A stretch of DNA of 58,667 nucleotides from Halanaerobiaceae bacterium (lineage in GTDB: Bacteria > Bacillota > Halanaerobiia > Halanaerobiales > Halarsenatibacteraceae), in contig PWDW01000100.1 in assembly GCA_003553225.1 (NCBI GenBank), positions 1-58,667 on the forward strand, given 5' to 3'. Made by a program: the position numbers and the translations under genes. Under the pieces are notes generated by a model. The model saw only the letters and a program-made list of their open reading frames with translations, was not told the DNA's origin and did not search any database. This document shows, in pieces, positions 37,159 through 43,279 of this stretch. Within the stretch, counting starts at the first letter, position 1. Every line of letters begins with the position of its first letter.

Positions 37159-37860
37159 GTGGATGGTAAAGAGATACCGGATAGAGAAGAACTGTTAGAG
37201 CTTTATGAGGACCTCAGGGTCGCCGATGTACGGGATGGGCTGGATTTTCTGGGTCTGCATCAATATGGATCAATGGATCCTGAGATCAGGCCTCTGAAAA
37301 GAAGCAGGGCTGTGGGTATTGCCCGCACTGCCAGGTATTTACCCTATGAAGGAGAAATTCCTGATCTTACTCCGGAGGAATATGAAGAATGGTCGGGCTG
37401 GTATTATGGTGAAGTATGTACCTATCCCTGGATGGAAGAGCTGCAGGAGGGAGACTTTGTGGTTATCGACCAGAGCAGAGTGGATGTGGGCTTGATGGGT
37501 TCAAATAATGCTCTGGAAGGTAAGAAAAATGGAGTTAAAGGATATGTTACCAATGGTGGAGTTCGGGATACAGATGAGATTATTCTGCAGGATATTCCCT
37601 TCTGGTCAAGTATGGTTTCCCAGTCCATGGTTCAGGGCCGTCTGCGCTTTGATGAACACAATGTTCCGGTCAATGTAGGGGGAGTAATGGTTAATCCCGG
37701 TGATGTTGTTGTGGCTGATGGTGATGGGGTGATAGTGGTACCCCGCAAAAAAGCTGTTGATGCTGCTCACTGGGCTCACCACATGTTAAAAGAAGATAAA
37801 GAGAGCCGCCGTAAACTATATGAGGATCTGGGCTGGGAGCTTGATGACACGGTTAAATAA
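37159..37860 (+). CDS. RraA-like family protein (oxo-acid aldolase/demethylmenaquinone methyltransferase-like fold)
   Basis: A 233-residue protein of the RraA/HMG-aldolase family. YVTNGGVRDTDEI holds the conserved Arg and Asp used by 4-hydroxy-4-methyl-2-oxoglutarate aldolases, and VNPGDVVVADGDGVIVVP is the usual C-terminal block. Members act as pyruvate or oxaloacetate aldolases/decarboxylases; only RraA proper inhibits RNase E. Start is GTG 37159 with GGGGAG about nine nt upstream. Next to an oxidoreductase and a PPC-domain protein, it may cleave a keto-acid intermediate. Substrate not known. Confidence 0.85.
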   Translation: MDGKEIPDREELLELYEDLRVADVRDGLDFLGLHQYGSMDPEIRPLKRSRAVGIARTARYLPYEGEIPDLTPEEYEEWSGWYYGEVCTYPWMEELQEGDFVVIDQSRVDVGLMGSNNALEGKKNGVKGYVTNGGVRDTDEIILQDIPFWSSMVSQSMVQGRLRFDEHNVPVNVGGVMVNPGDVVVADGDGVIVVPRKKAVDAAHWAHHMLKEDKESRRKLYEDLGWELDDTVK

Positions 37861-37916
37861 CCAATAAGGTTCCCAAGATTAGGTTCTCATCAGGCTTTCA
37901 CACAAGGAGGTAAAAA

Positions 37917-38345
37917 ATGCGCACGGGAAAAGGAAAAATCAGGGAAACGGTAGTTGTCAGTCTGGATAAAGGGGAGGATCTGCTGGCCTCGCTGGAAGAT
38001 GTTATTGCTGAATATGAAATTGAAAGTGGAGTTATTCTCTCCGGTTATGGGACAGTTGACCGCAGCACCCTTCATATGGTAACCACCACCGGGTTCCCTC
38101 CTGAGGAGTATTTTGACAAAAAGGAAGGACCACTGGAAGTGATTTCACTGGATGGCATCATTGCCGAAGGTAAGCTGCATGCCCACATAACACTTTCGGA
38201 TACAGAGCAGGCCTATGGCGGTCATCTGGAACCCGGCTGTCGAATACTTTACTTGGGAGAAGTGGTGATTGGAGTATTTGGGAATGATAGCCTGCTGACC
38301 AGAAAAGAAAATGAGCATGGCATACCGGAGCTGCACATTAATTAA
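37917..38345 (+). CDS. PPC (DUF296) domain protein
   Basis: A 142-residue single-domain protein. GVILSGYGTVDRSTLH and the core GKLHAHITLSDTEQAYGGHL, followed by CRILYLGEVVI, match the PPC domain found alone in bacteria and fused to AT-hooks in plants. The bacterial role is unclear: it forms trimers and may bind a ligand or DNA. It has AAGGAGG before the ATG and follows the RraA-like gene by 56 nt, so it probably belongs to the same transcript. Confidence 0.85.
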   Translation: MRTGKGKIRETVVVSLDKGEDLLASLEDVIAEYEIESGVILSGYGTVDRSTLHMVTTTGFPPEEYFDKKEGPLEVISLDGIIAEGKLHAHITLSDTEQAYGGHLEPGCRILYLGEVVIGVFGNDSLLTRKENEHGIPELHIN

Positions 38346-38392: not shown

Positions 38393-39697
38393 ATGGACAA
38401 AGAACAATTTGTACACAGGCTGGAAAGAATAACCAACCTGCAGGATACTGTGGCTGAAGTGCTGGATGTTCTGCCGGTTAAATTACCGGGAGGCACCAAA
38501 CAGAAACTTATGGACTGGATTCTGCAGGATGAAAAGATTGATGAGATGCTTTCCGGAATCAAAAAGAGACGCCCCCCACGCTTTATTCTGCTGGGCCGGA
38601 CCGGTGCTGGAAAAAGCAGTCTGATCAATGCCATGATGGGCTCCTATCTGGCTGAAACCAGTGATGTGCTTACCGGTACCTGGGCTGCTGAAAAGTATCG
38701 GTATCATGATAATTCCGGTGAGGTGGTTCTGGAAGTGATTGATACCCGTGGATTTGGTTCTCTAAAAGAAGAAAACCCGGTTAGTGCCCGTAAGGAACTG
38801 GCAGAAGTTTTCCGTAAATTTGCCCCCGATGCAGTCCTGTTTATGGTTCGGGCCAAGGAACGCAGTTACCTAAACCGGGATCTAAGTCTTCTACAGGAGA
38901 TGGGAGATTTATTTCCCGAAGGAATTCCCGTTCTGGCTTTAGCCTCCCAGGTGGATGAACTGGAGCCTTCCCGGTATAAAGATCCTTCAGCATACCCATC
39001 CCGCAAAAAGGAAAACATTTCTCAGGTTATTAATAGGCTGGAGGAAATTATGCCTGATTGTTTACCGGTGCTGGAAGTTATGCCTGTTTCTTCCTATATA
39101 GAGTGGGTGAAAGCTGATGGTTCTGCTGTGGATCCCGGGGATCTAACAGCCGAGGAAGCCCGGGAGCTGAAGATTCATTTTGATGGCCGCTTCGGAATTG
39201 AAAAGCTGACAGAACTGCTGGAAAACAACATGGATCTTAGGGCCCGCATTCAGTTCATGATGTCCAGCAAAATGGACCATCTGATTGATGATCTGTGTGA
39301 TTTATTTATAAACAGATTTTCTGTGATCGCAGGGGCAGTGGGGACTACTCCTGTTCCTACCTCTGATATGTTTATTTTAACCCCACTGCAGATTGTAATG
39401 ATCACCCTTATTGCCTATCTTTCCGGCCGGGAAATTAGTTTCAGCAGTTCCAGAGAGTTTTTGCTTACTGCTGGAGGAACCGGTCTGGTGGGTAAGATTT
39501 TTCAGCAGGGTGCAAAGCTGCTGAATCTGGTGGTACCCGGTACCGGAAGTGCGGTCAGTGGTTCTATTGCCGCTTCCGGCACCTATGCCATCGGTAAAGC
39601 CGCCAAACATTACTACCTGCGAGATGTCTCCGAAGAGAAGCTTTCTGAAATTATAAAGCAGGCCAGGGAAAAATACCAGGCAGACCGGGGGGAATAA
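38393..39697 (+). CDS. P-loop GTPase with hydrophobic C-terminal region (DUF697-like)
   Basis: About 434 residues. The P-loop GRTGAGKSS is near residue 69, the switch II DTRGFGSL near 117, and a G4-like ASQVDE replaces the usual NKxD. An alpha-helical region leads to hydrophobic segments (LTPLQIVMITLIAYLSG; VPGTGSAVSGSIAASG) resembling DUF697-type membrane-associated GTPases. I chose ATG 38393; the frame extends to 38378. It is two nt from the FIST gene, which in turn overlaps a GGDEF/HD-GYP gene, so all three are likely translated together. It may couple GTP state to membrane or signalling; target unknown. Confidence 0.85.
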   Translation: MDKEQFVHRLERITNLQDTVAEVLDVLPVKLPGGTKQKLMDWILQDEKIDEMLSGIKKRRPPRFILLGRTGAGKSSLINAMMGSYLAETSDVLTGTWAAEKYRYHDNSGEVVLEVIDTRGFGSLKEENPVSARKELAEVFRKFAPDAVLFMVRAKERSYLNRDLSLLQEMGDLFPEGIPVLALASQVDELEPSRYKDPSAYPSRKKENISQVINRLEEIMPDCLPVLEVMPVSSYIEWVKADGSAVDPGDLTAEEARELKIHFDGRFGIEKLTELLENNMDLRARIQFMMSSKMDHLIDDLCDLFINRFSVIAGAVGTTPVPTSDMFILTPLQIVMITLIAYLSGREISFSSSREFLLTAGGTGLVGKIFQQGAKLLNLVVPGTGSAVSGSIAASGTYAIGKAAKHYYLRDVSEEKLSEIIKQAREKYQADRGE

Positions 39698-39699
39698 TT

Positions 39700-40848
39700 A
39701 TGTTTACTCTTGATAAAAAGAATAAAGCTGAATTCAAAAAGAAAATATCAGAAATGAAGCTAAAAGAACGGGAGGTTCTTCTGGTTTTAATGGGAGAAGA
39801 ATGTGTATTTGAATATCAGGAGATTGCAGATATATTAAATAATAATAATATTACCTTTGTGGGTGGATTTTTTCCGGCCGTAATTATAGAAAACAAAAAA
39901 ACAAAGCAGGGGCTTATTGTGGTAAAACTACCCGTACAGAGAGAACCACTTCTGATTAAAAATATGGAACGTATATCAAAATACAAAAACCAGCTGGAAG
40001 ATATGAAGAAAATAATTGACAGGGGAGCCAAAAACAAGACTGTTTTTATTATCGGTGATGGGCATAATGATTTTCTTGATGATTTTCTGGATGAAATTTT
40101 TAACTTTTTTGCCAATTCAGTTGATTATATAGGTGGTGCTGCCGGAGGTGCTGAACCAATTTGTATTTTTAACAACCAGGACAGTTATAGAAATGCGGCA
40201 TGTGTATTACTCCTTGATTTATACTGTCAGCAGGGTATAAAACACGGCCTGCAGGATGTTTTCAATCCCCTGATTGCTACTAAAATAGATAGGAATGTTA
40301 TTAAAGAATTAAACTGGGATAATCCCTTTAAAGTATACAGTGAACAGGTTAATGCTATTTTAGCTCAGGAGGACAAACAGCAGAAACTAAAAAAGGAGAG
40401 ATTTCAGGATATTTCCCGGTTTTTTCCTGTGGGGATAATAAGAGAAAATCAGGATAAAATAATTAGAGATATATGGGGGGTAAATGAAAAGGGGGAACTG
40501 CTGTGTGGGGGAAAAGTTCCCGAAAATGGAGTTCTGTCCCTGATGAAAGCAGAAAAAAAGAATTTGATTGAGGCTTCAGGAAAGGCAGTTGAACAGATAT
40601 CCGAAAAACTTGAAAAAAAAGAAACAGCAGTAAAACCCAAAATTATACTTTTTATTGACTGTATTGCCCGGGCTCAGGTACTGGGTGCTGATTACAACAA
40701 AGCGGTTCAGATGATATATGAAAAAAACAGGCTTATTGGTCAACAGAGAGTGGTGGGGGTGCTTTCTATGGGGGAATTTTCTTCCGCCCAAAAAGGATTT
40801 ATAGAATATTACAACATGACAACTGTGGTGGGTGCTTTATATGAATAA
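39700..40848 (+). CDS. FIST N/FIST C domain sensor protein
   Basis: A 382-residue protein with the FIST_N pattern (VGGFFPAVIIENKKT, YIGGAAGGAEPICIF) and a FIST_C half (FFPVGIIRENQDKI, GGKVPENGVLSLM, LFIDCIARAQVLG, VGVLSMGEFSSAQKG). FIST domains are predicted to bind small ligands such as amino acids and often sit in signalling proteins. There is no output domain in this chain; the output is probably the c-di-GMP enzyme encoded immediately downstream with an 8-nt overlap. GGGGGGA precedes the ATG. Cytosolic. Confidence 0.85.
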   Translation: MFTLDKKNKAEFKKKISEMKLKEREVLLVLMGEECVFEYQEIADILNNNNITFVGGFFPAVIIENKKTKQGLIVVKLPVQREPLLIKNMERISKYKNQLEDMKKIIDRGAKNKTVFIIGDGHNDFLDDFLDEIFNFFANSVDYIGGAAGGAEPICIFNNQDSYRNAACVLLLDLYCQQGIKHGLQDVFNPLIATKIDRNVIKELNWDNPFKVYSEQVNAILAQEDKQQKLKKERFQDISRFFPVGIIRENQDKIIRDIWGVNEKGELLCGGKVPENGVLSLMKAEKKNLIEASGKAVEQISEKLEKKETAVKPKIILFIDCIARAQVLGADYNKAVQMIYEKNRLIGQQRVVGVLSMGEFSSAQKGFIEYYNMTTVVGALYE

Positions 40849-42742
40849 TTTTACTCATCAGGGAAACATTATTGATAAAATATCAGTTTTATATGAATTA
40901 TCTCTGGCAGTTGGCCAGTCTCTGGAGCTGCAAAAAAACTGTGATTATTTTTTAACAAAACTTTTGAAAAGAAAAAACCTGACCTATACCGCACTATGGA
41001 TAAAAAATAGATTTTTGGATAATAACCTGTTTGAGGGAATGAATATGGTATATGCTAAACCAGCCTATTTTTCAAGTAATAAGAAGAAAGTAGATTTTTT
41101 AAATTATCTGGGTAATGAAAAGAAAAAAAGAATCACCTGCAGGGATGAACTTTTTGCTAAAGTTAGCAGTAAAAATATTCAAGGGGGTACTTATGCCCTG
41201 TTTAAACTGGAGGACTTTGCAGTTCTCAAGTTATATTCTGAATTTGAGGAGCCACATGTTTTTGATGCTTATGAATTAAAACAGCTGGAAAATGTAATTG
41301 CCAATTTTGCCACCTCTGTCAGAGCCTGTTTATCTTATTCAGAGCTGCAGAACAAATTTAAAATGATTACTGATTCTGTACGTGAAGCAATTGTGATGCT
41401 CGATAGTAGAGGAGAAATAACCTTCTGGAATCCTGCTGCCGAGAGAATTCTGGGTTTTCAGGAAAGAGAAATAGTCGGGAAAAAGTTTAGTCAGGTTCTG
41501 TTAACTTCTGACAGCCGGGAATATTTTAAGCAGGCCTTGATCGACCTTGAAAAAGAAGAGAAAGACCAGCGGGGTAAGAATATAGAATTAAAAGGTGTAA
41601 AAAAGGGATCCGAAAAAATTGATCTTTCAATCTCACTATCTCCTTTAAGATTAAAAGGGAAAAATCAAAAAATAGCCGTGATCAGAGATATTACTGAGCG
41701 CAGACAAAAAGAGAAAAGAATAGAGCAGCTTCTTTTTCAGGATAGCCTTACCGGACTTTATAATCACCGTTATTTTAAAGAAGAAATGAACAGGCTGGAT
41801 ACAGAAAGACAGCTTCCTATCGGCCTGATTATGATGGATATCAATGGGTTAAAGATTATAAATGACACCTATGGTCATCAAAAAGGAGACCAGTTATTAA
41901 AAAAAACGAGTGATATTTTAACTGATAGACTTAGAGCAGAAGACATTGTGTCCCGCTGGGGTGGGGATGAATTTGCTGTTTTACTTCCCCGGACCGGCAG
42001 AGAAAAGATAGAAGGTATTGTCCGGAGGATAAAACAGGGTGCTCCCGAGACGGAAGAAAAAATACCGATTTCTCTGGCAGTGGGTTTTGCGGTAAAAGAA
42101 AAACCGGCAGAAAACTTCAGTGAAGTACTGGACCGGGCTGATGAAAAGATGTATCATGATAAACTGGAAAATAGCCGGAAGGTTAAAACCAGAATTATAG
42201 ACAGTATTCTGGAAAATATTTTTAAAAAAAGCAATGAAAGTGAAAAACATGTTCAAAGAATGACCAGACTGGCCTTTATGATGGGCCAGGAACTGGGTTT
42301 TAGTGAAAATGATTTGGAAAGATTGGCTTTACTGGCCAAACTTCATGATATCGGGAAAGCTGCTATTTCAGAAAAAATACTAAAAAAACCCGGCAGTCTG
42401 AATGAACAGGAATGGAATATAATCAAAGAACATCCCAGGAGAGGTTATAGAATCACGACCGCAACGGGTGATTTTGCAGAAGCTGCCCGGGATGTATATA
42501 CCCATCATGAGCGCTGGGATGGTGGAGGTTACCCTCAGGGTCTTAAAGCCGATGAGATACCCCTGAATGCCCGGATTATAGCTATAATAGATGCTTTTGA
42601 TGTTATGACCCGTAATGTTTCTTACAGTGAGGCCCTAACAAAATCAGAAGCTTTATCAGAAATACAGGCTCAGGCTGGCTCACAGTTTGATCCGGAACTT
42701 GTGTCTATATTTATTAATCTATCCTGTTTTAAAAAATCATAA
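40841..42742 (+). CDS. PAS-GGDEF-HD-GYP protein, c-di-GMP synthase/hydrolase
   Basis: About 633 residues in one soluble chain: an N-terminal GAF-like region (to about 165), a PAS domain (about 174-285), GGDEF, and HD-GYP. The GGDEF motif WGGDEF (near residue 373) is intact, with an inhibitory-site RAED five residues before it. The HD-GYP part has HDIGK (near 501) and HHERWDGGGYP, so both c-di-GMP synthesis and hydrolysis are possible. The start ATG overlaps the FIST stop by 8 nt, indicating coupled translation. A preceding GTG at 40832 is a less likely start. Confidence 0.93.
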   Translation: MNNFTHQGNIIDKISVLYELSLAVGQSLELQKNCDYFLTKLLKRKNLTYTALWIKNRFLDNNLFEGMNMVYAKPAYFSSNKKKVDFLNYLGNEKKKRITCRDELFAKVSSKNIQGGTYALFKLEDFAVLKLYSEFEEPHVFDAYELKQLENVIANFATSVRACLSYSELQNKFKMITDSVREAIVMLDSRGEITFWNPAAERILGFQEREIVGKKFSQVLLTSDSREYFKQALIDLEKEEKDQRGKNIELKGVKKGSEKIDLSISLSPLRLKGKNQKIAVIRDITERRQKEKRIEQLLFQDSLTGLYNHRYFKEEMNRLDTERQLPIGLIMMDINGLKIINDTYGHQKGDQLLKKTSDILTDRLRAEDIVSRWGGDEFAVLLPRTGREKIEGIVRRIKQGAPETEEKIPISLAVGFAVKEKPAENFSEVLDRADEKMYHDKLENSRKVKTRIIDSILENIFKKSNESEKHVQRMTRLAFMMGQELGFSENDLERLALLAKLHDIGKAAISEKILKKPGSLNEQEWNIIKEHPRRGYRITTATGDFAEAARDVYTHHERWDGGGYPQGLKADEIPLNARIIAIIDAFDVMTRNVSYSEALTKSEALSEIQAQAGSQFDPELVSIFINLSCFKKS

Positions 42743-43012: not shown

Positions 43013-43279
43013 ATGAGATCCAATTGTAAGGGCTGTCAGGCAAGTGTAAATTTAAGTGAGACCCGGATTGAAGAAATGTTAGCAGAACTGAAAGAACAAA
43101 AAGGAACTGAAGTGGTTTCTGAGAAAGTTTATCAGAAGCGGCTGGCAGAATGCCGGAAATGCAAATATTTTGTCCATAATACAACCTGCAGACAGAATGG
43201 TAGTATTATAGTAATCAAAGCCAAACTATCTTCAGCAGCATGTGTTAATCCCGGAGGGGCAAGGTGGGAACAGCAGTGA
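43013..43279 (+). CDS. Small Cys-rich protein, DUF6171-like
   Basis: An 88-residue protein with six cysteines arranged as CKGC near the N-terminus, CRKC in the middle (AECRKCKYF), and single Cys at TTCRQNG and AACVNPGG. The pattern suggests a structural zinc or iron site and resembles the uncharacterised DUF6171 family. AGGAGGGAG precedes the ATG. It follows a repeat copy, and the 277-nt gap after it shows no further gene. Function unknown. Confidence 0.7.
   Translation: MRSNCKGCQASVNLSETRIEEMLAELKEQKGTEVVSEKVYQKRLAECRKCKYFVHNTTCRQNGSIIVIKAKLSSAACVNPGGARWEQQ

What the first reader, a model, noticed from the sequence alone, without database searches (positions are those of the whole stretch)
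38393..42742. Coupled GTPase, FIST sensor and PAS-GGDEF-HD-GYP operon
The three genes are 2 nt apart and overlapping by 8 nt, so they are probably made together. FIST is an input domain without its own output, the third protein can both make and break c-di-GMP (WGGDEF with RAED I-site; HDIGK and HHERWDGGGYP intact), and the first is a P-loop GTPase with hydrophobic C-terminal segments and a non-canonical G4 motif. This suggests a signalling unit where ligand sensing and GTP state set c-di-GMP level, possibly at the membrane. I do not know a described system with this trio.
Basis: partly seen in the sequence, partly recalled or inferred. Interest (0 to 1): 0.55.

Follow-up and report, generated by a model that had tools for sequence, protein, structure and literature searches.

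The report
FIST sensor paired with c-di-GMP enzyme
Two of the three neighbouring genes form a widespread sensor-and-output pair, in which a FIST protein is inherited together with a partner that starts with a hidden GAF-type domain and can carry different outputs (here an enzyme that can make and break the messenger c-di-GMP), while the third gene, a GTPase, is probably just a neighbour.

Summary
The trio as a system finds no support: the GTPase stands beside none of 108 other FIST loci (88 with at least 1.5 kb upstream), the 9 GTPase relatives whose surroundings I read show no FIST, and its GC3 (0.47) differs from that of the other two (0.32, 0.33).

The FIST and PAS-GGDEF-HD-GYP pair is recurrent. 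In 71 of 80 named FIST loci a same-strand gene just downstream begins with the same ~165-residue domain, which Pfam mostly misses. AlphaFold and PDB comparison make it a divergent GAF domain. Outputs behind it vary: mostly histidine kinases, also GGDEF, GGDEF-EAL and GGDEF-HD-GYP. In 54 kinase-type loci, FIST distances follow those of this domain (r 0.85), not those of the kinase core of the same protein (0.21). So FIST plus GAF behaves as one input module with exchangeable outputs. This is the NosP kind of system, here wired straight to c-di-GMP. The window's FIST is unusually diverged, so its ligand is open.

The parts
39700..40848 (+). Stand-alone FIST (FIST N + FIST C) protein, 382 aa: proposed auxiliary sensor
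   Evidence: Pfam; AlphaFold pLDDT 95.1; best PDB match human FBXO22, E 1.7e-8; departs at 18 of 53 columns conserved in 90% or more of 71 relatives
40841..42742 (+). Partner protein: divergent GAF - PAS - GGDEF - HD-GYP, 633 aa; overlaps the FIST gene by 8 nt
   Evidence: motifs RAED, GGDEF, HDIGK, HHERWDGGGYP read in the translation
40841..41353 (+). Part that encodes the divergent N-terminal GAF domain (residues 1-171), the proposed FIST receiver
   Evidence: no Pfam match; AlphaFold pLDDT 89.7; GAF structures Z up to 14.8; found just downstream of FIST in 71 of 80 named loci; co-varies with FIST
41366..41701 (+). PAS domain (residues about 176-287)
   Evidence: Pfam
41738..42172 (+). GGDEF domain with RxxD motif (residues 300-444)
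   Evidence: Pfam; sequence
42218..42700 (+). HD-GYP domain (residues 460-620)
   Evidence: Pfam HD_5; sequence
38393..39697 (+). P-loop GTPase with DUF697-like C-terminal part; judged a neighbour, not part of the module

Best explanation
The FIST protein and the downstream protein form a two-protein sensor. FIST binds a small ligand and docks on the divergent GAF domain at the start of its partner. That contact changes the GAF domain and its long C-terminal helix, and the change passes through PAS to the GGDEF and HD-GYP domains, shifting the balance between making and breaking c-di-GMP. It works like the NosP systems, but without the histidine kinase and response regulator in between. The GTPase is a neighbour with a separate history. 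Shown here: gene order, the shared domain, its GAF fold (predicted), its co-variation with FIST rather than with the output, exchange of outputs. Inferred: physical docking, the ligand, the direction of the effect, the enzyme activities.
For: Of 80 named FIST loci from many phyla, 71 have the domain in a same-strand gene that starts within 600 nt downstream, 55 of those at a gap of 20 nt or less, and only one further match lies elsewhere among 900 ORFs of 150 aa or more; a first profile from 6 proteins, 2 of them from contigs also in the set, already gave 53 of 80. In 398 genomes of the phylum, 16 of 17 FIST genes of this clade have it directly downstream. Fold: AlphaFold pLDDT 89.7, GAF structure 3ci6 at Z 14.8, rmsd 3.0 over 153 residues. 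Co-variation: FIST-domain r 0.853, FIST-kinase core 0.214, partial 0.845 and 0.026, split-half 0.81-0.91 (54 loci). The output class changes at least 7 times on the FIST tree, 2 of these forced by starred branches (quick tree). Published NosP binds and regulates a kinase whose ~130 N-terminal residues have no recognised sensory domain (PMC12570481 passages). GTPase set aside.
Against: No complex was modelled and no assay exists; co-variation could partly reflect that the domain lies next to the FIST gene on the DNA. The second profile was built largely from the loci it was then run on. Three of 15 strong domain matches in 398 genomes have no FIST beside them, two of them in genomes without a FIST match at E <= 1e-10. 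Nine of 80 named loci lack the domain match. Of the 19 other FIST + GGDEF-HD-GYP pairs only 4 carry the domain by profile. The window's FIST has changed several residues that are the same in 71 of 71 relatives, so it might be decaying. Whether the window's pairing arose independently of the L049 group is unresolved (AU p 0.364).
Confidence: 0.7

Rival explanations
1. The trio is one signalling unit in which GTP state and ligand together set c-di-GMP.
For: 2 nt gap between GTPase and FIST, same strand; the FIST departs from conserved columns more than any other of 72, which would fit a changed input.
Against: GTPase beside 0 of 108 other FIST loci, 88 with 1.5 kb or more upstream (two weak matches elsewhere in L108 and L115); GTPase relatives in 5 genomes and 4 plasmids have other neighbours; GC3 0.469 against 0.319 and 0.328, the two lowest of 42 window genes; by single-sequence search FIST is in no other genome of 38 in the order and the GTPase has only weak matches there.
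Confidence: 0.08
2. FIST and the GAF-fronted partner are simply adjacent genes transferred together; the GAF domain senses its own ligand and there is no docking.
For: GAF domains often bind small molecules (general knowledge); linkage alone would give some shared history.
Against: Linkage does not readily explain why the same GAF type follows FIST in 71 of 80 loci, or why the kinase core of the same gene shows no residual correlation with FIST (partial r 0.026). NosP is published to bind its partner kinase in a two-hybrid assay (PMC12570481 passage).
Confidence: 0.17
3. The FIST here is a haem-bound nitric oxide sensor like NosP (a claim about the ligand, compatible with the best explanation).
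For: Same domain make-up and gene arrangement; NosP binds haem and senses NO (PMC12570481 passages).
Against: No ferrochelatase family match in this genome (96% complete, 269 contigs) although HemC is there (other haem routes and uptake not tested); many conserved residues changed.
Confidence: 0.25

Closest known systems
NosP-NosK-NosR / NosP-NahK-NarR (FIST auxiliary sensor with histidine kinase and c-di-GMP response regulator)
   Same: Stand-alone FIST gene beside the protein it is thought to control; end effect on c-di-GMP. Among our kinase-type relatives L045 is followed by a REC-HD-GYP gene and L048 by a REC-GGDEF-EAL gene, L047 by an HD-GYP gene.
   Different: No kinase or receiver in the partner here; it is itself PAS-GGDEF-HD-GYP. 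Haem and NO binding untested, FIST strongly diverged. The published NosK itself was not tested for the GAF domain.
CdpA of Vibrio cholerae (FIST fused to an EAL domain)
   Same: FIST input to a c-di-GMP enzyme (PMC8846402 passages).
   Different: One fused protein with EAL; here two proteins, a GAF front end, GGDEF and HD-GYP.
H-NOX proteins with partner kinases or DGC-PDE
   Same: Separate soluble sensor controlling a signalling enzyme (PMC8846402 passages).
   Different: Different sensor domain (HNOB against FIST).
MMR_HSR1-DUF697 type GTPases
   Same: The upstream gene matches this domain order.
   Different: Not found beside FIST or c-di-GMP genes in the other loci examined.

Membership tests
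NosP-type auxiliary sensor | Stand-alone protein of FIST N + FIST C | tested here: met
   Pfam 48.0 and 73.1 bits, both over cut-off
NosP-type auxiliary sensor | Gene next to the regulated signalling partner | tested here: met
   8 nt overlap; same arrangement in 71 of 80 named loci. That the partner is regulated is inferred.
NosP-type auxiliary sensor | Binds haem and nitric oxide | not testable with these tools
   Ferrochelatase family not found, HemC found; haem ligand of NosP not found in the papers held
NosP-type auxiliary sensor | Alters activity of the partner | not testable with these tools
   needs an assay
NosP-NosK-NosR two-component system | Partner is a histidine kinase with a response regulator | tested here: not met
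   Partner has no kinase domain, and none of the 9 window proteins scanned has a kinase or receiver domain; the rest of the window was not scanned
GAF domain | GAF fold | tested here: met
   AlphaFold pLDDT 89.7; GAF structures Z up to 14.8, rmsd 3.0, 153 aligned; predicted, not solved
GAF domain | Match to a curated GAF profile | tested here: not met
   window 0 matches; 3 of 47 members match PF01590 at E <= 1, best 0.0011
Bifunctional GGDEF-HD-GYP enzyme | Intact catalytic and I-site motifs | tested here: met
   RAED, GGDEF, HDIGK, HHERWDGGGYP in sequence, profiles; activity itself not testable
DUF697 GTPase | MMR_HSR1 GTPase domain followed by DUF697 | tested here: inconclusive
   MMR_HSR1 over cut-off; DUF697 26.6 bits against 27.7

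The most novel reading that the evidence does not exclude
FIST plus a divergent GAF domain, mostly missed by Pfam, is a general two-gene input module across bacteria and archaea. The GAF is the missing receiver of NosP-type sensors, and it is plugged onto kinases, diguanylate cyclases, c-di-GMP phosphodiesterases and possibly phosphatases. The window holds a version wired directly to c-di-GMP with a FIST retooled for another ligand.
Probability: 0.55. Interest if true: 0.65.

Novelty: new variant of a known kind. Interest (0 to 1): 0.48.

Why it matters
A 2022 review says that little is known about how FIST proteins bind substrate and pass on the signal (PMC8846402 passage), and a 2025 study found no recognised sensory domain in the partner kinase NosK (PMC12570481 passage). 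A shared, co-varying GAF domain at the start of FIST partners names the likely point of contact, predicts FIST partners in genomes by sequence, and makes the question testable by binding and domain-swap assays, including with outputs that need no phosphorelay.

Tried and rejected
GTPase as part of the unit: rejected. GTPase as a defence protein: PADLOC gave only weak matches (best E 3.7e-5) and PHROGs weaker ones (best E 0.0055); not pursued. Trio tied to the upstream RraA-like/PCC genes: a paralogous RraA-PCC pair in the same genome is followed by other genes, so no link. Promoters and terminators: no better than shuffles. FIST in solved structures by sequence: nothing credible (best E 0.31). 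GTPase in solved structures: distant MnmE, Der and, weaker, IMAP-type GTPases. Independent origin of the window's GGDEF-HD-GYP pairing: not decided (AU p 0.364). Haem ligand residues of NosP: not found in the papers held. The flanking Fe-ADH-like gene in the order gave no bearing on the trio; its surroundings were not compared.

That 'FIST partners share a GAF domain' is not in print rests on searches of an open-access library only. Most of the listed papers I saw as listings; passages only of PMC12570481 (also its introduction), PMC8846402, PMC6769237, PMC8738867 and PMC6195638. The original NosP papers were not read (one look-up failed).

Two weak GTPase matches in FIST loci, L108 (23% identity, E 2.9e-5, about 2 kb downstream of the partner) and L115 (E 1.2e-4), were not counted as the GTPase.
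Full report
Observation. The three ORFs are as described: GTPase 38393-39697, FIST 39700-40848, PAS-GGDEF-HD-GYP 40841-42742, with a 2 nt gap and an 8 nt overlap. Pfam confirms the domains, and the RxxD, GGDEF, HDIGK and HHERWDGGGYP motifs are intact in the translation. Residues 1-170 of the third protein have no Pfam match.

The GTPase is not part of a conserved unit. By single-sequence search FIST is found in 1 of 38 genomes of the order, the window's own; the GTPase matches 12 of 38 including its own, the best other at E 2.2e-7. In 398 genomes of the phylum (Bacillota, judging from a contig of the same length that carries that name), FIST matches occur in 48 (E <= 1e-3) and GTPase matches in 6 (E <= 1e-15; at most 4 candidates per genome were scored). 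Only the window's own genome is in both lists. The five other GTPases have neither FIST nor the third protein within about 3.5 kb. In plasmids 29 records match the GTPase, 6 over at least 80% of its length. I read 4 of these 6 (Priestia, Rossellomorea, Natrinema, Streptomyces); none has FIST or a c-di-GMP gene annotated within 5-6 kb, though these gene tables are incomplete. None of 108 other FIST loci has the GTPase; 88 of these have at least 1.5 kb upstream of FIST. GC3 is 0.469 for the GTPase, within the range of the upstream genes, and 0.319 and 0.328 for FIST and the third gene, the two lowest of 42 window genes. Separate histories of the GTPase and the pair fit best (inference).

The FIST-partner pair is conserved. 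Around the 20 best FIST matches of the phylum, 19 have a signalling gene directly downstream on the same strand; the exception is L059 (for L060 the start was misplaced, and the domain begins right after FIST). The N-terminal ~165 residues of many of these partners are alike although what follows differs: kinase, hybrid kinase, GGDEF, GGDEF-EAL, GGDEF-HD-GYP. A scan of named genomes with the FIST alignment gave 227 relatives, 80 kept, by their titles from Bacillota, Bacteroidota, Chloroflexota, Cyanobacteria, Spirochaetes, Desulfobacterota, other Proteobacteria, haloarchaea and others, most of them metagenome assemblies. A profile from six partners found the domain in the downstream gene of 53 of these 80 (54 ORFs in all; two of the six come from contigs that also occur in the 80). 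A second profile (47 sequences, most from these loci, so partly circular) found it in 71 of 80, in a same-strand gene starting within 600 nt, 55 of them at a gap of 20 nt or less, with one further match elsewhere among 900 ORFs of at least 150 aa. The nine without it are L110, L113, L120, L124, L128, L134, L151, L152 and L158; L151 and L158 have a partner whose start looks similar by eye, and in L152 a gene with the domain lies about 2 kb away on the other strand.

The converse test. In 398 genomes the domain profile matches 31 (E <= 1e-3) and the FIST profile 66 (E <= 1e-10). With thresholds chosen after seeing a gap in the scores, 17 FIST genes in 16 genomes score below 1e-100, and 16 of the 17 have the domain directly downstream; the exception is the second FIST of G335. 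Of 15 domain matches below 1e-20, 12 lie directly after FIST. The three others are G335 (which thus has one unpaired FIST and one unpaired domain protein), G244 and G345, the last two without a FIST match at E <= 1e-10. Weaker domain matches away from FIST mostly lie inside other proteins and may be ordinary GAF relatives. Both profiles include sequences from some of these genomes.

What the domain is. Of 47 members, 3 match Pfam GAF at E <= 1 and the window does not. AlphaFold gives pLDDT 89.7, pTM 0.85. Foldseek's best matches in the PDB are only moderate (a dual-sensor histidine kinase, E 1.3e-4; GAF domains from rank 8 on), but in the second look GAF domains and phytochrome PAS-GAF fragments fill the top rows: Z 14.8, rmsd 3.0 over 153 residues for 3ci6. 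It ends in a long helix (143-170) that leads into PAS, as expected for a transmitting linker (inference). The FIST model (pLDDT 95.1) matches human FBXO22 (E 1.7e-8), which papers listed connect with the name FIST.

Co-variation. For 54 loci with kinase-type partners I compared pairwise distances of FIST, of the domain and of the kinase core. The 54 are those of 59 kinase-type loci left after dropping short FIST rows and loci without a long enough domain or kinase match; some near-duplicates remain. Simple identity distances: FIST-domain r 0.819, FIST-HATPase 0.315, and 1000 permutations never exceeded 0.110. Similarity distances with the longer DHp-CA region: 0.853 against 0.214; partial correlations 0.845 (FIST-domain given kinase) and 0.026 (FIST-kinase given domain); split-half reliabilities 0.81-0.91, so noise does not explain the difference; among the 1268 pairs of loci with FIST distance over 0.5 the values are 0.791 and 0.120. 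The domain follows FIST, and the kinase core of its own protein does not. Closeness on the DNA may contribute, but the simplest reading is selection on contact between FIST and the domain.

Outputs. Of the 71 named partners, HATPase_c is found in 56, GGDEF in 5, HD_5 in 5, EAL in 2, SpoIIE in 1 (some partners are cut by contig ends). With home-made profiles, 109 loci including the window and without 5 duplicates: 59 kinase, 20 GGDEF+HD-GYP, 5 GGDEF+EAL, 4 GGDEF, 2 HD-GYP, 19 none or cut off. Of the 19 other GGDEF+HD-GYP pairs, 16 have a gap of 2-4 nt; only 4 of the 19 (L049-L051, L053) carry the domain by profile, and the rest belong to a second FIST clade whose partner starts looked GAF-like by eye in the few that I read (L061-L064). 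On a quick tree of 87 FIST proteins the output class changes at least 7 times (2 forced by starred branches; shuffled mean 25). The window is a long branch without a sure place, and grouping it with the L049 set is not rejected (p 0.364). Nine of 59 kinase-type pairs have a separate c-di-GMP gene within 3 kb on the same strand (43 of the 59 have at least 2.5 kb downstream), somewhat like published NosR; in two of them a receiver domain was confirmed (L045, L048).

The window's FIST is odd. Of 53 columns conserved in at least 90% of 71 relatives it departs at 18, among them G147A, W184L, S323A and E335A, where the other 71 agree; the next highest count is 10, in the unpaired L059. Its GAF domain departs at 1 of 13 columns conserved in at least 80%. 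The genome has HemC but no match to the ferrochelatase family. So a changed ligand, or a weakened sensor, is possible, and nitric oxide sensing should not be assumed.

What is known. NosP proteins are FIST sensors of nitric oxide that inhibit or activate kinases feeding c-di-GMP enzymes (PMC12570481: passages and introduction; PMC8846402, PMC6769237 and PMC8738867: passages). PMC6195638 states that genes of NosP and H-NOX lie in operons with kinases or cyclic dinucleotide enzymes (it prints di-AMP; passage), so the FIST-enzyme pairing as such is in print. NosK is described as having no recognised sensory domain in its ~130 N-terminal residues. I did not test the published NosK, NahK or VpsS. 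The shared GAF front end was not mentioned in the passages that I read; searches of the open-access library listed 5, 3 and 2 papers, of which I saw passages of PMC8846402, PMC12570481 and PMC6195638 only.

Verdict. The trio is two things: a GTPase that probably happens to be next door, and a recurrent FIST plus GAF-fronted enzyme pair. The general result, that FIST and a hidden GAF domain form one input module with exchangeable outputs, is the part worth following up.

Noticed in passing
window 37159-38345 and L233:5950-7474: The RraA-like and PCC genes upstream of the trio have a second copy in the same genome (74% and 75% identical), followed there by a gene that looks like an aldehyde dehydrogenase by eye instead of the GTPase.
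   Followed up: partly
L059 and L198 (both genome G335): One genome holds an unpaired FIST and, far away, an unpaired protein with the GAF domain next to genes that look like response regulators by eye; they may be a split pair working in trans.
   Followed up: partly
L212, L213 (plasmids pHsi139 and pSR84): FIST genes followed by genes annotated as GAF- or PAS-containing lie on plasmids of Haloarcula and Salinibacter, so the pair may move between distant hosts.
   Followed up: no
L229-L232 (plasmids): Relatives of the GTPase sit apart from FIST on plasmids of Priestia (43% identical), Natrinema, Rossellomorea and Streptomyces, two of them within a few kb of transposase or recombinase genes; function unknown.
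   Followed up: partly
L108:8399-9838: A 479-aa weak relative (23%) of the GTPase, matching also the C-terminal part, lies about 2 kb downstream of a FIST pair in a Leptolyngbyaceae assembly.
   Followed up: no
genomes G014, G019 (same order) and G331 (same class): FIST-like profile matches inside long open frames (649-1169 codons), perhaps FIST fused to other domains.
   Followed up: no
window 43013-43279: Small cysteine-containing protein with a sub-threshold DUF6171 match (21.6 bits against 27) about 270 nt after the module.
   Followed up: no
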